Shown piece by piece: positions 4,920 through 14,801 of a DNA stretch of 64,000 nt; position 1 is the stretch's first letter; each line of letters opens with the position of its first letter. Origin of the DNA: a virus; the IMG/VR virus record IMGVR_UViG_3300001782_000005, positions 213,132 to 277,131 of that record. One strand, 5' to 3'. Both the position numbers and the translations under genes were made by a program. Below the pieces are notes generated by a model, which saw only the letters and a list, made by a program, of their open reading frames with translations, did not search any database and had not been told where the DNA came from.

Positions 4920-4942
4920 GCAGGAGGTTTTTTATATAACCA

Positions 4943-4984
4943 AAAAAAAGACCTCAAGTATATTAATAACTTGGGGTCTTTAAG
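4943..4984 (-). terminator. Intrinsic terminator of the tas gene
   Basis: Read on the minus strand, AAAGACCCCAAGT (4969-4981) pairs with ACTTGAGGTCTTT (4947-4959) around a nine-base AT loop and is followed by a T-run (4942-4949). It lies 20 bases after the tas stop codon. Confidence 0.88.
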
Positions 4985-5003: not shown

Positions 5004-6167
5004 TCACCTAGAATGTACGATACCCAATTTTTCTTCTTCATATGGAGCGGATATCGGTAGTCCTTCTAACTCCCTCCACTTCCTCCAGAAGTCAAGAAGA
5101 AATATTTTGAGCATATAGCGAATACTCATATTCTTTATATGGTTATCGCTTATGATATTACTCAAGACAAACTTCTTTGCTTCTTTTAGAGTTGGTTGTT
5201 TTTTCTGTTTTGCCAACCATTTCTTACATAACTCATATTTCTCAGAGTTAATGGTCAGGGTTCCCTCAGAATCATGGGGGTCTTTTTTATAGAGGATTTG
5301 TTTTTGCCTTAGAGCTCTTATGAAGAACTCCCTTCTTCCCTGCATTCTAGTTCTGTAATCATAGAAAATAGGTGAATAAATATTATCTTGCTTACGAAGG
5401 AAACTGGTTGCCAGGACATGGAGTTTTGTTTTTAGGTATGGGGAATATGTTATACTCTTCTTTGTTTTGGTTTTACCAGACTTATCTGTATATTCCCTAT
5501 CGACTAAGTGGTGAGATTTCTTACTTCTACCTTCTCCTCTGACAACCTCTTCACCTTCGATCTCATCTAGAGTCCATACCACGTCAAGACCAGCATAACT
5601 CCAAAATGCGGTGACATGGTTTGCCCTATGAGGATCAAGTTCGCTCACAAGAACGCCGCCCATTGTAGGACCAACTCCTTCAAGTCCTTTCAGGAATTCT
5701 GTCCAGATTGGAAACTCATCAAGAAATTTCTCAATTTGCTTATTGATCTTGTACTCCTGTTTGACAAGAGATATATAGGTGTCAACAAATATAAACATAA
5801 TTTCACCAGAGATTATACCAGGGTGTGCATCCTTCATAATCTTAGGAATCTCTTTCATGTTTATCACAACACCGTCAGTGATTCTCTTGTATTCTCTAGA
5901 GATAAGTCCCATTAACTCTTTTGGGAGACCATAAAGACCTTCTTTCTTTTCTCCCGGTTTTAGTCCAAAGCGACGATATAGATTACCAAGAATCCTATTT
6001 CCCATCCTGATCCTATCCCTCTGAATATCGTCATATCCTCTAATTAATCCTCTCAATTCAATCTTTGGACTCCACAACTCAGGTACAGGTTGCACAGGTA
6101 TGCTAAAACCTCTGCCCTTGAAAACATCTGCGATTGATTTTATAGGTTCTAAAACTTCCTTAGCCAT
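5004..6167 (-). CDS. TasA-like Nop-domain protein (TIGR-associated, no nuclease domain)
   Basis: 387 residues. An N-terminal and central helical region (about 40-160) precedes a helix-hairpin-helix-like segment, GLEGVGPTMGGVLVSEL (161-177), then FWSYAGLD (188-195), a signature shared by IS110 transposase C-terminal (transposase_20) domains and Tas/Nop proteins. The C-terminus (about 240-370) is a basic helical region with many aromatic and Arg residues. No RuvC DEDD region, catalytic Ser-loop or HNH motif is visible, so it resembles the nuclease-free TasA class. The ribosome site AAGGAG (6175-6180) abuts the first repeat of the adjacent array. Known Tas proteins bind 36-nt tigRNAs to recognise DNA; that this one does so is inference from family and context. 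Alternative: a domesticated IS110-like protein. Confidence 0.8.
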   Translation of the reverse strand: MAKEVLEPIKSIADVFKGRGFSIPVQPVPELWSPKIELRGLIRGYDDIQRDRIRMGNRILGNLYRRFGLKPGEKKEGLYGLPKELMGLISREYKRITDGVVINMKEIPKIMKDAHPGIISGEIMFIFVDTYISLVKQEYKINKQIEKFLDEFPIWTEFLKGLEGVGPTMGGVLVSELDPHRANHVTAFWSYAGLDVVWTLDEIEGEEVVRGEGRSKKSHHLVDREYTDKSGKTKTKKSITYSPYLKTKLHVLATSFLRKQDNIYSPIFYDYRTRMQGRREFFIRALRQKQILYKKDPHDSEGTLTINSEKYELCKKWLAKQKKQPTLKEAKKFVLSNIISDNHIKNMSIRYMLKIFLLDFWRKWRELEGLPISAPYEEEKLGIVHSR

Positions 6168-6180
6168 AACACTTCTCCTT

Positions 6181-7706
6181 GGTTCACTATATATATATGG
6201 GATTCTTTAATTCGATGGTTCACTCTACGTGCCGGTACGTCTCGATTCTTTGGAATCGGAAACACGCTTCTCTTGGTACACTACAATTTATTGATTTTTC
6301 TTATTCCTTGGTACACTTTTTCTTCTAGATTTTTTAAGAGATATAGGTTCACTCATGTTCGTTGGATACTGCGGACTTCTGGTTCACTCCGGATGTTTGA
6401 ATTTTATCAAATGATGGTTCACTGCCAACAAATGGTTTTTCCTTGCCAATACGGTTCACTTTTGAGTTCTGATTTTTTTGTGCTTGAAGGTCCACTTTAT
6501 AGAAATGGGTTGCTGTAATTACATGGTTTACTAACACCCACAGGATTTCTCCCAATTCTAGGTTCACTTTTTTCTTCGGAATATTCTCCCCCACCTGGTT
6601 CACTTATCGTCTTAGGTTGTTTATCCATTCCGGGTTCACTCGGCAATTGGGTTTTTACTACGTAACTTGGTCCACTCCAACGCGCTGGGTTTCTGCGAGA
6701 GGACGGTTCACTCTTTTTTCAGGTTAATCTCCCCCACTTGGTTCACTCAAATTTTTGGGTTTCTGACATTTTATGGTCCACTCCGTGTCGCTGGATTCCT
6801 CTGCTCCCTGTTGGTTCACTATTCAAAAATTGGTTTTTTTCCTTAGATTGGTTCACTCCGGCGCACTGGGTTTCTGTTGCTGGGTGGTTCACTTGGTGAA
6901 TGTGAATTATTACAGGGGAATGGTCCACTTTATCATATTAGATTTTTTTCGTCGTTGGTTCACTTTGAAAAATGGGTTTGCATGACTTTTTGGGTTCACT
7001 CAGTCATCATGAATAACTGCCTTCAACTGGTTCACTGCAGCTCCCAGGTTTTCTCCGGGCTTATTGGTTCACTGGACTATAATGGTTTAGCTGTAGACTT
7101 TGGTTCACTTTCATGTACGGGATTTTCTAGCCAACGTAGGTACACTCCTTGCATCGGTTACCTGATATGCTATGGTTCACTTAACAATGATGATTTTTTG
7201 TGTCTTTATCTGGTTCACTTTCCAACGATGGGTTACTTCGCCAAAACGGTCCACTCAAAAATCCTGGTCTTCTGGCCTCGCTTGGTTCACACTAATTTCG
7301 GATTGGTACACTCTAAGGTGCCCTGCACCGACTGGTTTTTTACACTTTCCTTGAATGGTTTTCTCGCCCAGACCGGTTCATTCCCGTTTTCTGGTTATTA
7401 TCCTCACTTCTGATTCACTCGCCACGTCTGAGTTTTTTGATCACTACTGGTTCACTTTCGTCATTTGATTTCTGCTCAATTTTGGTTCACTTAAGATTCT
7501 TAGATACTTCTTTATCTTGGTTCACTAGACTGATTGGATTAATTGTACCACAGGTTCACTCGGCGGGTATGAATTTTTCTGGATGCATGGTTCACTCATT
7601 CTGTTTAGATACTGATAAAGTTAGGTTCACTGAGGTTAGGAGGGTTCCTATTTCTCTCCTTTGGTTCACTCTCTCGCTCAGGTAATCTGTTTCACGATGG
7701 TTCACT
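6181..7706 (-). repeat. TIGR-like array: about 42 GGTTCACT repeats with alternating second repeat
   Basis: The plus strand carries GGTTCACT (variants GGTCCACT, GGTACACT, GGTTTACT) at 6181, 6217, 6275, 6310, 6346, 6381, 6416, 6453, 6489, 6525, 6561, 6597, 6633, 6669, 6705, 6740, 6775, 6813, 6850, 6886, 6922, 6957, 6993, 7029, 7066, 7102, 7139, 7174, 7212, 7248, 7284, 7305, 7339 (degenerate), 7375, 7412, 7449, 7484, 7519, 7553, 7589, 7624, 7663 and 7699. Spacing is 34-39, mostly 36. Halfway lies a weaker GGGTTTCT/GGATTTCT repeat, giving edge(8)-spacer(~10)-loop(8)-spacer(~10). Minus-strand transcription toward tas is preferred: the minus repeat AGTGAACC holds the UGA expected of C/D-like RNA, and the array runs straight into the tas ribosome site. 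No gene here is credible. Confidence 0.85.
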
Positions 7707-7723
7707 TTGCAGAATAAATTACT

Positions 7724-7756
7724 AAAAAAAAGTACTCATAACGAGTACCTTTTTTT
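7724..7756. terminator. Bidirectional terminator bounding the array
   Basis: GTACTC (7732-7737) pairs with GAGTAC (7743-7748) between an eight-base A-run and a T7 run, so it can work in both directions. It isolates the repeat array from the RNA and genes beyond it. Between it and the last repeat (7707-7723) is a short AT-rich stretch (minus strand TAGTAATTTATTC) that could hold a -10 element for array transcription. Confidence 0.8.
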
Positions 7757-7764
7757 CTAAAGGG

Positions 7765-7908
7765 TGGTAGGGGGTGGGAATCGAACCCAAAGACGGTATT
7801 GGCAGTTGAAAGGAGGAAAGACCGCCAACTTTGGAAAAGAGTCCTCCCGACCGTCTTGGATGGTGGTAGAACAACCATCCAGCATTCCGGTTGCCATTCC
7901 CCCTACCA
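7765..7908 (-). ncRNA. Large tRNA-like structured RNA
   Basis: On the minus strand, TGGTAGGGGG (5' end, near 7908) pairs with CCCCCTACCA (3' end, near 7765) as a 10-bp acceptor-like stem. A D-arm-like hairpin follows (GGCA-ACCGGAA-TGCT with the GG dinucleotide), then a 7-8 bp hairpin (TGGATGG/CCATCCA, loop about 9-11 with no regular anticodon), then an 8-bp stem AAGACGGT/ACCGTCTT enclosing about 50 bases, and finally a near-canonical T-arm, TGGG-TTCGATT-CCCA. It is about 144 nt, far longer than a tRNA, so it is either a tRNA with a huge variable region or a tRNA mimic. The alternative of a tRNA with an intron was not supported by any regular anticodon stem. Confidence 0.55.
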
Positions 7909-7945
7909 TTAGAGTTTCCTGTGTATCTCTCATATGCGCCTCTCT

Positions 7946-10317: not shown

Positions 10318-11100
10318 TTACTCCGCTAAAGGCTTCAGAGCAAACATTTGAATCCAGGGTTTACTCCTATATCCAGCCTCACCGCCGGAGAATCCGAAAC
10401 CACCGGAACCAACACCACCACTGTTCTGATTGTTTTTGGCAGTCTCAATCCATGCCTGAGTGTAGCTAAAACCAACGCCCCACCCGAAGGCCTTGATTAC
10501 ACGAGAATAACCTTCTGCAGTCAGAAACAACGTTTTGGCTCCCATGTCTAGAGCGGAAAGAGCAGCAGCCGCCAATACCTCCATTGAGGTTGAGTCTACA
10601 TTCTTGCTTGATACATAAATAAGACCAACCTGCTGAACGGGGTATGAAGGTCGCTTAATTATAATCTCAATGGTATCCTCAGCAGCTTTCTCGTCCTTCT
10701 TCTTTATAGGAACTAAGGATTTCGCATTGATCTTGATCCTACCGCCTGCCATGGCCTCCAGTTCAGCACGAGTCCACACCTTCTTGAAGAGCAACATAAC
10801 GCCTGCTTTCTGGAAGTTGTAGTCCTCTGTGGGCTGACCGAAGTACTGTGGATATCCGGGGTAATTAACATCGCCCGGTACCGGGAAGCTTCTGGGAATC
10901 TCCGAACCATACGTAGTGATGGTTGCACTAGGACTCCCACCTATCTGAAGTTGCGACTGCTCATTGTTGCTAAGGTTCTGGTTATCAACTTCATTAGCGT
11001 TGGAGTTGTCACCATTTGCAATAGCATCAGCGAAAACAGCAGGCGCACTCAGCACCAAGCAGGAAAGTAGTGCGACCAGAATGAATAGCTTACGCCTCAT
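10318..11100 (-). CDS. Exported protein, last gene of secreted-protein operon
   Basis: 260 residues from the ATG at 11100, chosen because GGAAAGGAGG precedes it and a Sec signal starts there (MRRKLFILVALLSCLVLSA, cut near AVFA-DA). After an Asn/Gln-rich stretch (about 25-50) and a Pro/Tyr segment comes an alpha/beta domain with GLIYVSSKNVDS and EVLAAAALSALDMGAKTLFLT, then a Gly-rich C-terminus. GC is clearly higher than in the flanking phage genes. Family not recognised; it probably works outside the cytoplasm with the other operon products. Confidence 0.7.
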   Translation of the reverse strand: MRRKLFILVALLSCLVLSAPAVFADAIANGDNSNANEVDNQNLSNNEQSQLQIGGSPSATITTYGSEIPRSFPVPGDVNYPGYPQYFGQPTEDYNFQKAGVMLLFKKVWTRAELEAMAGGRIKINAKSLVPIKKKDEKAAEDTIEIIIKRPSYPVQQVGLIYVSSKNVDSTSMEVLAAAALSALDMGAKTLFLTAEGYSRVIKAFGWGVGFSYTQAWIETAKNNQNSGGVGSGGFGFSGGEAGYRSKPWIQMFALKPLAE

Positions 11101-11122
11101 AGGGTCTTTCCTCCTTTCCTGC

Positions 11123-11989
11123 TTAGAGACCGCCGAGTCCCTCATTATAGGTGATGGACCCGTCCAATACCGGGACCGATCCTGCGCTGTTGATGGTGAG
11201 TTTGGTATATGACTGAGATGCCTGTTGCTGGACTCCAGAAGCTCCAACAAGGACACCTTCGCCATCAAACACTGGCCGCTGTACCTGCTCTTGTATGAAC
11301 ACATTGTTCGCTTCAAGATCAAGATCAGCATCACCAACCATGCTTACTGCAGCGCCGACACATGACTCATGACCACCACTCTGCTGCATGGCCAAGAGAA
11401 CAACATTTTCCATCAACAGTTCGCCAGCTATTCCATAAGTTGGCATCCAGTCAATGTCAATGTCTATGTCAGTGTCAGAATCGAAGTCAGCCTCGACCTC
11501 GGTTTCTGATTCTGCTTCTGCTTCAGAATCGGACATAGCAAGGGCACCAGCGCCAGCAACGGCTCCTGAACCGCTCAGGGCACCAGCACCAGCTATTTCA
11601 ATAGCTTCGCCCTCTCCGCTAGTATTTGCATTAGCGGTTGCATCACTGTCTCCAGTAGCGTTTGCATTTGCATCCGCATCCGAATCAGAAGTTGCGGTAG
11701 AGTCTGCAGTGGCATCGCTGCTAGCACTGTAACTCTCGTCGATGTTGATGTCTACAATCAACTGATCATTGAACACAGGATTCCAGCTGAGACTGAGACT
11801 CTCAATTGAGAGATCAATCATGGACTGTTCGGCACAACAGGTTTCATGGTTGTTCCAAACAATACCATCAACTCCACTGGGTTGACCAATTGTCAGAGAT
11901 GCATCGAGATCCTTGGGCGGATCAGCGAGAGACGGTACCGCAAAGGAGACCAGTGCAACAGCCAACAGTATAGCTAAGACTTTCTTCAT
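11123..11989 (-). CDS. Exported low-complexity Asp/Ser/Ala repeat protein
   Basis: 288 residues with a Sec signal peptide (MKKVLAILLAVALVSFAVPSLA) and AAGGAGG upstream. Residues about 90-180 are low-complexity Asp-Ser-Ala-Asn-Thr repeats (SDSDADANANATGDSDATA and similar); the flanks are beta-prone, with paired Cys (ETCCAE, HESCVG). Composition suggests a secreted, perhaps calcium-binding or fibre-forming protein. Second-last in the minus-strand operon with uniform 20-30 base gaps. Confidence 0.7.
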   Translation of the reverse strand: MKKVLAILLAVALVSFAVPSLADPPKDLDASLTIGQPSGVDGIVWNNHETCCAEQSMIDLSIESLSLSWNPVFNDQLIVDINIDESYSASSDATADSTATSDSDADANANATGDSDATANANTSGEGEAIEIAGAGALSGSGAVAGAGALAMSDSEAEAESETEVEADFDSDTDIDIDIDWMPTYGIAGELLMENVVLLAMQQSGGHESCVGAAVSMVGDADLDLEANNVFIQEQVQRPVFDGEGVLVGASGVQQQASQSYTKLTINSAGSVPVLDGSITYNEGLGGL

Positions 11990-12019
11990 GTCTTTTGCCT
12001 CCTTAATGTTTATGTAGGG

Positions 12020-12472
12020 TTAGTTAGTTGACGTTGATACAACTGAACTGGTGGATGTTTGTGTACTAGTTCCCGTTTGAACTCCGATATATCCGTTAGC
12101 TGCAAGACCAACTTGATTCTGCACATTGGTCTGATAAGCGTTAGCACCACCGGATGTAAACACACGAGTCTTATCTGTACAGTTGAGATCAGTTGTTGAT
12201 TGGATTACCTGAATGACTTCCTGATCGGAAATCTGACTCATTTCTGCATCAGCGGGCATGGCCCAATACTTAGCATCATAATCCAAACCGACATCTTCAG
12301 CTGTTACCGTAAGACCCTGAGCACGATTTTCAAGACGTGTGCTCTGATCGTACTCTTGATATATGACCTGCTTAGCATCCGTATTGGCATTGGTGGCACC
12401 ATCGTCCGCATAGACGGAACTAGTGAGTACGAAGACCAACACGAGAACTAGAAAGACTATTGTCTTCCTCAT
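12020..12472 (-). CDS. Small exported protein
   Basis: 150 residues with a clear signal peptide (MRKTIVFLVLVLVFVLTSSVYA). The mature part is Gln/Asn/Thr-rich with two Cys and ends in a Ser/Thr-rich tail (GTSTQTSTSSVVSTSTN). It shares the N-terminal NANTDAKQ / DNSNANEV flavour of the protein at 10318, so the two may be related subunits. Unrecognised family. Confidence 0.68.
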   Translation of the reverse strand: MRKTIVFLVLVLVFVLTSSVYADDGATNANTDAKQVIYQEYDQSTRLENRAQGLTVTAEDVGLDYDAKYWAMPADAEMSQISDQEVIQVIQSTTDLNCTDKTRVFTSGGANAYQTNVQNQVGLAANGYIGVQTGTSTQTSTSSVVSTSTN

Positions 12473-12504
12473 GTGGTCACTCCTTTCTCAGTGATCGGAG
12501 GTTC

Positions 12505-13491
12505 TTATCGAGGGACGTTACATTCTAACACACCAGCTGCAGTGAAACTGCTAACTGACCCTGCTTGGTAACCGCCTTGAACCTGGCCAGCCACAACACC
12601 GTCTCCAGCCCAACTAAGGGTGGTACCACGGTGAGTTTCGAAAGAGCAGTTTTCAGCATAGGATCCGCTCATGGCCAAGGTTTCTGACTTAGTCTTGGTC
12701 TCATCCTTGGTCTCGGTCACACTCTTGTCCCAGCTCTCTGACTTATCTTTGGTCTCAGTTACACTTTTATCCCAAGATTCAGATGAGCTACCGGAACCTG
12801 AGAGATCGCCGGAGAAGGTGTGAGTATCTGTCTCGGTGACTGACTCTGACTTATTATAGTCACAGTCAGGGCAGTCAGAGTCTTCCTGAGTGTCGTTGTC
12901 AGTGAATGTCCCAGTTGAGGTTTCTGTCACAGTTTCCTCATCCGTACACTCTGCATTCGCAGCGATTTCAAATGAACCCTCACTGGAGGAGTCCTCATCG
13001 ACTACTTTGGTCTCAGTCTTTGACTCGACGTAATCTTCATCGACAACCTTGGTCTTTTCCTTGGACTCGGTCTTCGTTTCATCATACTGCTTGTCGAACG
13101 ACCAAGTACCATCTTTGGAACTTTCCATGGTGAAGTATTTGTCAATGTTGATTGAACCCTCACCCAAAGTGGCAAGTTGACCTTGACCATCAAACTGCAT
13201 GGCCTCACCCTGAGCGCTCTGCATGGTGAAACCACCCACAACAGCATCTTCACAGTCTTCACAGTCGATGGTTGCGGAGGTATCAGCCTCAAGCAGCATC
13301 TCTTTCTTGGATGATTGGAGCATTTCTCCACCGATAGTATCTCCACCCTCATTCTGAATGGCCTGGGCACCCTGGAATTGCTCATCAGTCATGCCCTGGT
13401 AGAGTTCGGCCGAACCACTGATATCTGCCAGCGCCGGGCCGGCAAAAATCAGCAGAACGATGGAAAGTAATACAATAACTTTCGTCTTCAT
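12505..13491 (-). CDS. Exported Ser/Thr/Glu-rich protein with internal repeats
   Basis: 328 residues with a signal peptide (MKTKVIVLLSIVLLIFAGPALA) and GGAGG upstream. The middle (about 130-260) is almost entirely Thr, Glu, Ser, Asp and Lys, including two tandem copies of SESWDKSVTETKD. Cys pairs occur at CEDCED and CPDCD. The ends are Gln/Gly-rich and beta-prone. It looks like an extracellular stalk or fibre protein. GC is high for the window. Confidence 0.68.
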   Translation of the reverse strand: MKTKVIVLLSIVLLIFAGPALADISGSAELYQGMTDEQFQGAQAIQNEGGDTIGGEMLQSSKKEMLLEADTSATIDCEDCEDAVVGGFTMQSAQGEAMQFDGQGQLATLGEGSINIDKYFTMESSKDGTWSFDKQYDETKTESKEKTKVVDEDYVESKTETKVVDEDSSSEGSFEIAANAECTDEETVTETSTGTFTDNDTQEDSDCPDCDYNKSESVTETDTHTFSGDLSGSGSSSESWDKSVTETKDKSESWDKSVTETKDETKTKSETLAMSGSYAENCSFETHRGTTLSWAGDGVVAGQVQGGYQAGSVSSFTAAGVLECNVPR

Positions 13492-13604
13492 GTCTTTGTT
13501 CCTCCTTTCAAAGGGGAATTTAATTAGTTTGAAAAGTAAATACCTCTACCTCTAAAACCTACTTATGACCACCCCCTTCCATGTTTAGATTTGATCGCTG
13601 TTGA

Positions 13605-14147
13605 TCATTGAGAGAAGGATTGTTCCTTCTTGGGTTGTCTTACTTTATAATATGCATCACCAATAGCAACTAAAGGAAGCCCTTGGTTATCATAAAGGAT
13701 GGCTCTCAATTTTACAGTAGAACCAGGATCAACAGGACCATAGATGGTGACATAATTATTAAGTTTGCTAGTGGGTCCACTAACATACTCAACCTTCCTG
13801 GTGCGCCCCTTAAAGGGTTTAGACACGTCTAGCCACGATTGAACTTTATACTCAATGTTTTTCGGATTTTTGATCCAGGCATTGAGTGTTACGCCCTTGA
13901 CATTCTCAGGAAGATACATTTTTTCGTTGACCTTGAAATAGATTGGATATGGTTCTAACTCCTCTCCTCCAAGATCTTTCATTATCCACCCTGCAGCATA
14001 ATACTGAACCCTTATATCTACCTCTGGATCCGGGACCCTTAGATATTCTTGCTCATTACTCATAGGGTATCCGTCGACCAAAACAGTCATATTTGGCGCA
14101 CAGGAGACAGCAACAAAAATAAGTAACACATACATCTTACGCCACAT
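13605..14147 (-). CDS. Putative lipoprotein
   Basis: 180 residues. The short hydrophobic N-terminus ends in VAVSCAP, a lipobox with Cys16 as lipidated residue. The rest is beta-rich with many Tyr/Val (DIRVQYYAAGW, KVQSWLDVSKPFKG), consistent with an outer-membrane-anchored periplasmic or surface domain. AAGGAGG upstream. Could be the assembly or anchoring factor for the secreted proteins in the same operon; that is inference. Confidence 0.7.
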   Translation of the reverse strand: MWRKMYVLLIFVAVSCAPNMTVLVDGYPMSNEQEYLRVPDPEVDIRVQYYAAGWIMKDLGGEELEPYPIYFKVNEKMYLPENVKGVTLNAWIKNPKNIEYKVQSWLDVSKPFKGRTRKVEYVSGPTSKLNNYVTIYGPVDPGSTVKLRAILYDNQGLPLVAIGDAYYKVRQPKKEQSFSQ

Positions 14148-14171
14148 AGGCGTCCTCCTTCCATTTTTTTG

Positions 14172-14801
14172 CTATCTCGGTTGTACTTCGTTTCTTGGAC
14201 TACCCGTTGATGGTGAGGATGCATAAGAACCGTTGCTGCCCTGGTTTGGTTGAGATGAACTATTTACAGATTGACCATTAGATGGTCCACTACCCGGGTA
14301 ACCTTTTGGGCAACCTGGACATACTACTTGTACTTGTGGGCAACAGGTAGTATGGCGTTCAAGCCAAATTTTGGTTATTCCTCCAACCTCTTGATGATCG
14401 GTTTTGGGATATTGAAGAGAAAACAGTTCATCCCTTGATTCTTCAACCTCGTCGTCATCTTCGGATTTTGGTTGATCTATGCATCTCGCTCGCATTGCTT
14501 GATCATATTGAGAGAGTGCAACCCCAGCCTTTTCTTTCTTGTCAATCGCTGCGAAGACTTGATCGCAGGTTGGAGTATTGTCAACGACAATCTTAGTGTC
14601 GATATCCGGGTCTTTGGTGTCATATTTGCCTGGTGGCAAACTTATGTTCTCGCCCGGATTGTCCATGGTAGGACTGTCTGCTTTCAATGGCAACTCAATC
14701 AACTCTATACCTGGGTCATGTACATTGTCTTCGGCTAAGGTAAAAGTTGATATTAATGCAATTGAAAGAATGATAAAAAATACTAGTAAGATTCTCCTCA
14801 T
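14172..14801 (-). CDS. Exported protein with Pro/Ser/Gly-rich tail
   Basis: 209 residues, first gene of the minus-strand exported-protein operon. Signal peptide MRRILLVFFIILSIALISTFTLA. Middle region with paired Cys (TPTCDQ, RARCIDQ) and a Cys cluster CCPQVQVVCPGCP; the last 45 residues are Gly/Ser/Asn-rich and disordered. Strong AAAGGAGG site. No family recognised. Confidence 0.68.
   Translation of the reverse strand: MRRILLVFFIILSIALISTFTLAEDNVHDPGIELIELPLKADSPTMDNPGENISLPPGKYDTKDPDIDTKIVVDNTPTCDQVFAAIDKKEKAGVALSQYDQAMRARCIDQPKSEDDDEVEESRDELFSLQYPKTDHQEVGGITKIWLERHTTCCPQVQVVCPGCPKGYPGSGPSNGQSVNSSSQPNQGSNGSYASSPSTGSPRNEVQPR

What the first reader, a model, noticed from the sequence alone, without database searches (positions are those of the whole stretch)
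5004..7756. Complete TIGR-Tas-like locus: nuclease-less Tas protein plus ~42-repeat array
Seen: about 42 GGTTCACT-type repeats at a modal 36-base period, alternating with a second repeat GGGTTTCT, so each unit has two ~10-base spacers. This abuts a gene for a 387-residue protein with the HhH/Nop-like GVGPTMGG...FWSYAGLD segment of IS110 and Tas proteins. Known: TIGR-Tas systems (described in 2025 in phages and parasitic bacteria) use 36-nt tigRNAs with two spacers and Nop-domain proteins. No RuvC or HNH is visible, so this resembles TasA. Inferred: array and tas share a minus-strand transcript, because the first repeat touches the tas ribosome site and AGTGAACC contains UGA. A nuclease-free system in a jumbo phage points to silencing, anti-defence or inter-phage competition rather than cutting.
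Basis: partly seen in the sequence, partly recalled or inferred. Interest (0 to 1): 0.92.

Follow-up and report, generated by a model that had tools for sequence, protein, structure and literature searches.

The report
Nuclease-less TIGR-Tas system in jumbo phage
This giant phage carries a recently discovered kind of RNA-guided DNA-binding system, a guide array plus a protein with no cutting domain, and comparing its arrays with those of sister phages shows which guide positions natural selection protects, although what the guides aim at remains unknown.

Summary
Window 6180-7706 is a TIGR dual-repeat array (42 edge repeats, modal period 36). ORF 5004-6167(-) is a Tas protein: it passes the curated NCBIfam TIGR-Tas cut-off (116.5 vs 100 bits), and its closest solved folds are TasR and TasH. 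No RuvC or HNH domain is present, so it is TasA. The genome is a complete circular ~277 kb T4-like jumbo phage, with a second, orphan array of 28 units at 75.5-76.5 kb. In 13 of 13 contigs carrying both this repeat and a tas gene, the AGTGAACC strand is the tas strand, so tigRNAs come from the minus strand. The array runs straight into the tas ribosome site. New here: sister phages share collinear guides amid replaced ones, and substitutions in shared guides avoid spacer positions 4-5 (6 vs 14 expected, p=0.004), the TasR 'seed'. So the nuclease-less system's guides appear to be under selection for pairing. A perfect match in a type I-E cas7 gene is one of 11 hits (about 7.5 expected by chance) and is only a lead. 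Most likely: RNA-guided binding and silencing of other DNA.

The parts
5004..6167 (-). tasA: 387-aa Nop-domain Tas protein without nuclease domain
   Evidence: NCBIfam NF052498 TIGR_Tas_endo 1.6e-33, 116.5 bits > cut-off 100, residues 38-365; profile hits to PDB TasH and TasR; AF2 model pLDDT 76, best folds 9mty TasR and 9w04 TasH; no RuvC/HNH in Pfam
6180..7706 (-). TIGR array 1: 42 edge repeats (5'-AGUGAACCA on the tigRNA strand) alternating with loop repeats (AGnAAnCCA), about 40 units with two ~9-nt spacers each
   Evidence: strand assigned from 13/13 co-orientation with tas in related contigs
6175..6180 (-). tas Shine-Dalgarno AAGGAG, its first base shared with the last edge repeat (AGTGAACCAAGGAGAAGTGTTATG)
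   Evidence: sequence; same arrangement in sister phage G003 and at array 2
6217..6274 (-). non-canonical 58-nt unit with a hairpin (CGATTC TTTG GAATCG) in place of the loop; CTnCGTGCCGGTA conserved in the sister phage
7283..7352 (-). non-canonical hairpin unit (GGTGCCCTGCACC) inside the array; nearly identical in the sister phage
7724..7756 (-). A/T-flanked hairpin at the distal (5' on the tigRNA strand) border of the array, terminator-like on both strands; isolates the array from the upstream tRNA-like gene
4942..4979 (-). terminator-like hairpin AGACCCCAAGT...ACTTGAGGTCT followed by T8, 3' of tas
   Evidence: read from the sequence; not listed by the scan tool, whose loop limit is 8

Best explanation
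This is a TIGR-TasA system. A minus-strand transcript starts at the distal end of the array, runs through the guides and into tasA, and ends at a terminator behind tasA. It is cut within the edge repeats into ~36-nt tigRNAs, each with a box C (CCA) and box D (AG) pair around two ~9-nt spacers. A TasA dimer binds one tigRNA; the two spacers pair with opposite strands of one ~18-bp DNA site, unwinding and bending it without cutting, which would block transcription or replication there. The second, orphan array at 75.5-76.5 kb feeds the same protein, giving about 70 guides. Shown: gene, arrays, strand, fold, absence of a nuclease, and selection on guide positions. Inferred from studied relatives: 36-nt processing, dimer, dual-strand DNA binding. 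Inferred without direct test: silencing of DNA from outside this phage (host defence genes or rival mobile elements).
For: Curated family model, PDB profile and fold hits. Same repeat family in 19 further contigs; tas above the family cut-off in 13 of 18 records searched, and in all 13 the AGTGAACC strand is the tas strand. Some of these relatives (L054, L065) look like HNH-bearing TasH, which ties the repeat to proven DNA targeting (paper PMC12045711). Substitutions in 26 orthologous guide families avoid spacer positions 4-5 in minus-strand numbering (6 vs 14.0 expected, p=0.004; interior positions only, p=0.036) but not the corresponding positions if the + strand were used (13 vs 14, p=0.44); positions 4-5 are the seed mapped for TasR in PMC12045711. 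No self-targets with 0-1 mismatch.
Against: No target found for any guide, so the outcome of binding is untested. No RNA evidence for transcription or 36-nt products. A terminator-like hairpin lies just beyond the array on its + side, which alone would also fit + strand transcription. Loop repeats in this phage are looser than in most relatives. The seed-depletion test rests on 63 substitutions.
Confidence: 0.75

Rival explanations
1. The guides regulate the phage's own genes: TasA binds the phage genome to switch genes during infection.
For: Nuclease-less, and encoded by a lytic-type jumbo phage in which cutting self would be harmful; both arrays sit in the leader of phage genes.
Against: No own-genome target with 0-1 mismatch for any guide in either geometry; 2- and 3-mismatch counts are no more than a modest composition effect (T1 3 and 29, T2 2 and 35, shuffled T2 1.5 and 23.5). 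No guide from one sister phage matches the other.
Confidence: 0.07
2. The guides silence host defence genes, such as type I-E CRISPR cas7: RNA-guided counter-defence.
For: A guide identical in four sister phages (window 6345-6379 in this one) matches 18/18 bases of a cas7e gene at its conserved SSQCLK-RTWRTS motif in a Desulfobacteraceae MAG.
Against: That hit is 1 of 11 in 257 Gb, where about 7.5 are expected by chance; no other guide matches that cas operon above background; 16 other Desulfobacterota cas7e loci do not match. The host is unknown.
Confidence: 0.15
3. The guides target rival phages or other mobile elements (inter-element competition).
For: Proposed for TasA in PMC12045711; one guide conserved in four phages matches 18/18 of a contig ORF that reads like a large terminase (FDEVLQSWD..., L204).
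Against: Five guide patterns scanned over 2.9 million viral contigs gave 0, 5, 28, 0 and 4 hits, at chance level and without agreement between guides.
Confidence: 0.35
4. tigRNAs guide TasA to RNA, as box C/D snoRNAs do, rather than DNA.
For: Nop fold shared with Nop5 (weak); variable columns show a weak 3-base phase only if both spacers are read on the same strand (p about 0.03 before correction).
Against: TasR has no activity on RNA substrates (PMC12045711); no L7Ae or fibrillarin partner was found near the locus by the searches made.
Confidence: 0.06
5. A decayed IS110-type transposase beside an unrelated tandem repeat.
For: Pfam calls the HhH segment Transposase_20.
Against: IS110 model score 30.6 vs cut-off 140, while the TIGR-Tas model passes; no room for a DEDD domain; tas-repeat association in 13 contigs.
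Confidence: 0.01

Closest known systems
TIGR-TasA of Flavonifractor plautii (FpTIGR) and other solo-Nop Tas systems, Faure et al. 2025 (PMC12045711)
   Same: Nop-only Tas protein; alternating edge and loop repeats with ~9-nt spacers; 36-nt period; paired box motifs; phage setting
   Different: About 40 and 28 units in two arrays rather than the usual 5-15; array lies 5' of tas and runs into its ribosome site; TasA is 387 aa with extra insertions; box D is AG, not the UG described for TasR arrays; two hairpin units inside the array
TIGR-TasH (HNH) in phages, e.g. relatives L054 and L065 here and PDB 21kl/9w04
   Same: Same edge repeat AGTGAACCA and same co-orientation in L054 and L065; profile E 6e-63 over the Nop part of 21kl
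   Different: No HNH domain in the window protein
TIGR-TasR (PDB 9mty)
   Same: Nop fold; box C CCA; seed positions 4-5 match the conserved guide positions here
   Different: No RuvC domain; box D differs
IS110/IS621 bridge-RNA transposases
   Same: Shared HhH/Nop segment
   Different: Fails the IS110 equivalog cut-off; no DEDD domain; many guides in an array

Membership tests
TIGR-Tas | Tas protein with a Nop domain of the Tas clade | tested here: met
   NF052498 116.5 bits > curated 100; PDB profile and fold hits to TasH and TasR
TIGR-Tas | Adjacent array of two alternating 8-12-nt repeats with ~9-nt spacers, ~36-nt period | tested here: met
TIGR-Tas | Box motifs at repeat ends that covary between edge and loop repeats | tested here: met
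   AG...CCA ends in both edge and loop over 410 units
TIGR-Tas | Array transcribed and processed to 36-nt tigRNAs | not testable with these tools
   needs small-RNA sequencing; strand inferred from 13/13 co-orientation
TIGR-Tas | Tandem spacers bind opposite strands of one DNA site | tested here: inconclusive
   no target found; seed-position conservation is indirect support
TasA subtype | No nuclease domain | tested here: met
   no HNH/RuvC Pfam hit; Nop match starts at residue 38 and residues 1-37 are mostly low confidence
TasR / TasH subtypes | N-terminal RuvC or HNH | tested here: not met
IS110 family transposase | IS110 equivalog with DEDD catalytic domain | tested here: not met
   30.6 bits vs cut-off 140, match only to the C-terminal part of the model
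CRISPR-Cas | Single repeat of 25 nt or more with unique spacers of similar size, cas genes | tested here: not met
   8-9-nt dual repeats; the flanking proteins tested are not Cas
Box C/D snoRNP | Nop5/56/58 with fibrillarin and L7Ae, k-turn guide RNA | not tested
   only weak fold similarity to Nop5 (E 0.2-0.8); partners not searched for

The most novel reading that the evidence does not exclude
The phage uses about 70 tigRNAs and a nuclease-less TasA as a programmable repressor of host immunity, for example binding type I-E cas7 at its most conserved motif: an RNA-guided, multi-target anti-CRISPR and anti-defence system whose guides are inherited, reshuffled and kept under seed-position selection.
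Probability: 0.12. Interest if true: 0.92.

Novelty: new member of a known kind. Interest (0 to 1): 0.62.

Why it matters
What TasA does, what TIGR guides aim at, and how TIGR arrays gain and lose units are stated open questions in the founding paper (PMC12045711). This phage group gives a natural comparison series: two arrays at conserved positions, several sister phages, dozens of orthologous guides. It already yields two partial answers: shared units keep their order while new ones are interspersed, unlike leader-end CRISPR growth, and the TasR seed positions are the conserved ones in a nuclease-less system, so its guides appear to be selected for pairing. With the host genome or small-RNA data from the same samples, targets could be named directly.

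Tried and rejected
Codon-phase idea: orthologous guides looked synonymous by eye, but a formal test failed (41 vs 40.1 expected, p=0.42; synonymous share 0.615 vs 0.576, sd 0.049), so it is dropped. Housekeeping-gene targets: guide-encoded peptides are not enriched in 1.2 Mb of a Desulfobacterota genome. Overlapping targets between guides: none above shuffles. Self-targeting: none with 0-1 mismatch; the earlier hint of self-avoidance did not hold. cas7e: kept only as a lead. The QGARV/ATRAPC guide in 395 Desulfobacterota genomes gave 12 one-mismatch hits (about 10 expected by my estimate) in unrelated genes. A second-array tas: there is only one tas in the genome. A first AlphaFold model with two sequences was useless (pLDDT 33). 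No tas relative was found in cultured phages by tblastn.

Full report
What is there. The window is bases 213132-277131 of a 277131-base viral contig. Two independent assemblies of the same phage (99.998% identical) run across its ends with a ~94-base overlap, so the genome is complete and circular although filed as linear. It is T4-like: a Gp23 major capsid protein and an S77-type prohead protease lie upstream of the locus. The repeats are real: 42 edge repeats between 6180 and 7706, modal spacing 36, 29 exact GGTTCACT on one strand against 0.7 expected. Read on the minus strand the unit is edge AGTGAACCA, 9-nt spacer, loop AGnAAnCCA, 9-nt spacer; both repeats begin AG and end CCA, over 410 units from related contigs.

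The protein. ORF 5004-6167(-) passes the curated NCBIfam model TIGR_Tas_endo (116.5 bits, cut-off 100) and fails the IS110 model (30.6, cut-off 140). A profile of nine homologues finds TasH (6e-63), TasR (3.5e-39) and more weakly IS621 in the PDB. The AlphaFold model on that alignment (pLDDT 76, pTM 0.74) matches TasR and TasH best, then IS621, then Nop5 weakly. The Nop match starts at residue 38; no HNH or RuvC is detected. It is TasA. It is about 100 residues longer than its nearest complete homologue outside the sister phage (L058, 285 aa), through an N-terminal extension and insertions around residues 195-240 and 288-340. No second tas lies in the genome.

Second array. A scan of the genome finds an orphan array of 28 units at 75526-76530, upstream of an unrelated gene whose ribosome site again follows the last repeat (AGTGAATCATAGGAGAAATTAATG). 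The same site carries the same kind of array in three related contigs L052, L053 and L057, whose flanks are 72-86% identical to this phage.

Strand. An IMG/VR scan for the edge-loop-edge pattern returned 21 stretches; 13 of 18 records searched carry a tas above cut-off. In all 13 the AGTGAACC strand is the tas strand, with arrays on either side of tas. If each lineage were a coin toss, with the two sister phages counted as one, the chance is about 2^-12. With the ribosome-site junctions this makes minus-strand transcription the clear choice. The terminator-like hairpin beyond 7724 can serve the upstream tRNA-like gene. Transcription itself was not tested. Relatives L054 and L065 carry an N-terminal HNH-like segment (C..C, GGTYT, H..H) absent from the window protein (read from the alignment, not called by Pfam), so one repeat type appears to serve both cutting and non-cutting Tas.

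How the arrays evolve. A sister phage (G003, mostly 74-83% identical) has tas 83% identical and a 54-unit array at the same place. Ten elements are shared with array 1, in the same order (1 inversion of 45 pairs), including both hairpin units. The array-2 orthologues of L052 and L057 share 15 units with 0 of 105 inversions. Unshared units are interspersed; 6 of 7 comparisons show no significant end bias, one (L057 vs L053) does, p=0.004. A few guides sit in array 1 in this phage and in array 2 in others. This looks like vertical inheritance with internal gain, loss and exchange.

Selection on guides. In 35 orthologous guide families, 26 with changes, 63 positions vary. By tigRNA position 1-9 over both spacers the counts are 9, 4, 8, 3, 3, 10, 5, 5, 16. 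Positions 4-5 have 6 changes against 14.0 expected (p=0.004; 0.036 with spacer edges removed). No other adjacent pair is depleted, and the same test in + strand numbering gives p=0.44. The TasR seed is the two target bases next to the cut, which pair with guide bases 5 and 4 by the C-5 rule (PMC12045711). The match was not built in, but the numbers are small, the windows were looked at after the fact, and edges may be blurred by spacers of 8 or 10 nt.

Targets. Own genome and sister genomes: nothing with 0-1 mismatch. Viral contigs: five guide patterns gave 0, 5, 28, 0 and 4 hits, at chance level or single-lineage; one lies in a terminase-like ORF. Genomes: the guide that is identical in four phages has 11 exact hits in 257 Gb (about 7.5 expected), one of them in a type I-E cas7 at its most conserved motif. 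Other guides do not match that operon and 16 other cas7e loci do not match. I treat this as a lead with perhaps one chance in eight of being right. The idea that shared guides vary synonymously was tested and failed.

Verdict. A genuine, complete TIGR-TasA locus: a new member of a known kind. The function is still inference, and the main added value is the comparative evidence that these guides are inherited, reshuffled and selected at the seed.

Noticed in passing
window 7760-7912 (-): A tRNA-like cloverleaf with a very large (~68 nt) structured variable arm, fold -61.5 kcal/mol, z -4.2; conserved in the sister phage (81%) with apparent compensatory changes; called neither by ARAGORN nor by Rfam.
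   Followed up: partly
window 6217-6274 and 7283-7352: Two hairpin-bearing units inside a dual-repeat array, both conserved at the same place in the sister phage; the second is more conserved than ordinary units. Possibly stem-loop-type tigRNAs or regulatory elements.
   Followed up: partly
G000:75526-76530 (L009:5526-6530): Second, orphan TIGR array of 28 units, with no tas beside it, conserved in place in at least four related contigs.
   Followed up: yes
L029 (G003 about 87230-87500): In the sister phage's array a small gene (MSEIELGRKVRD...) interrupts the array; its Shine-Dalgarno directly follows an edge repeat.
   Followed up: no
L054, L065: Contigs with the same edge repeat but a TasH-like protein with an N-terminal HNH-like segment: one repeat type, apparently cutting and non-cutting effectors.
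   Followed up: partly
window 10318-14801 (-): A run of small predicted secreted proteins with signal peptides in a jumbo phage.
   Followed up: no
L009:866-8818 (G000 70.9-78.8 kb): tRNA-Pro, -His, -Cys and -Trp genes around the second array.
   Followed up: no
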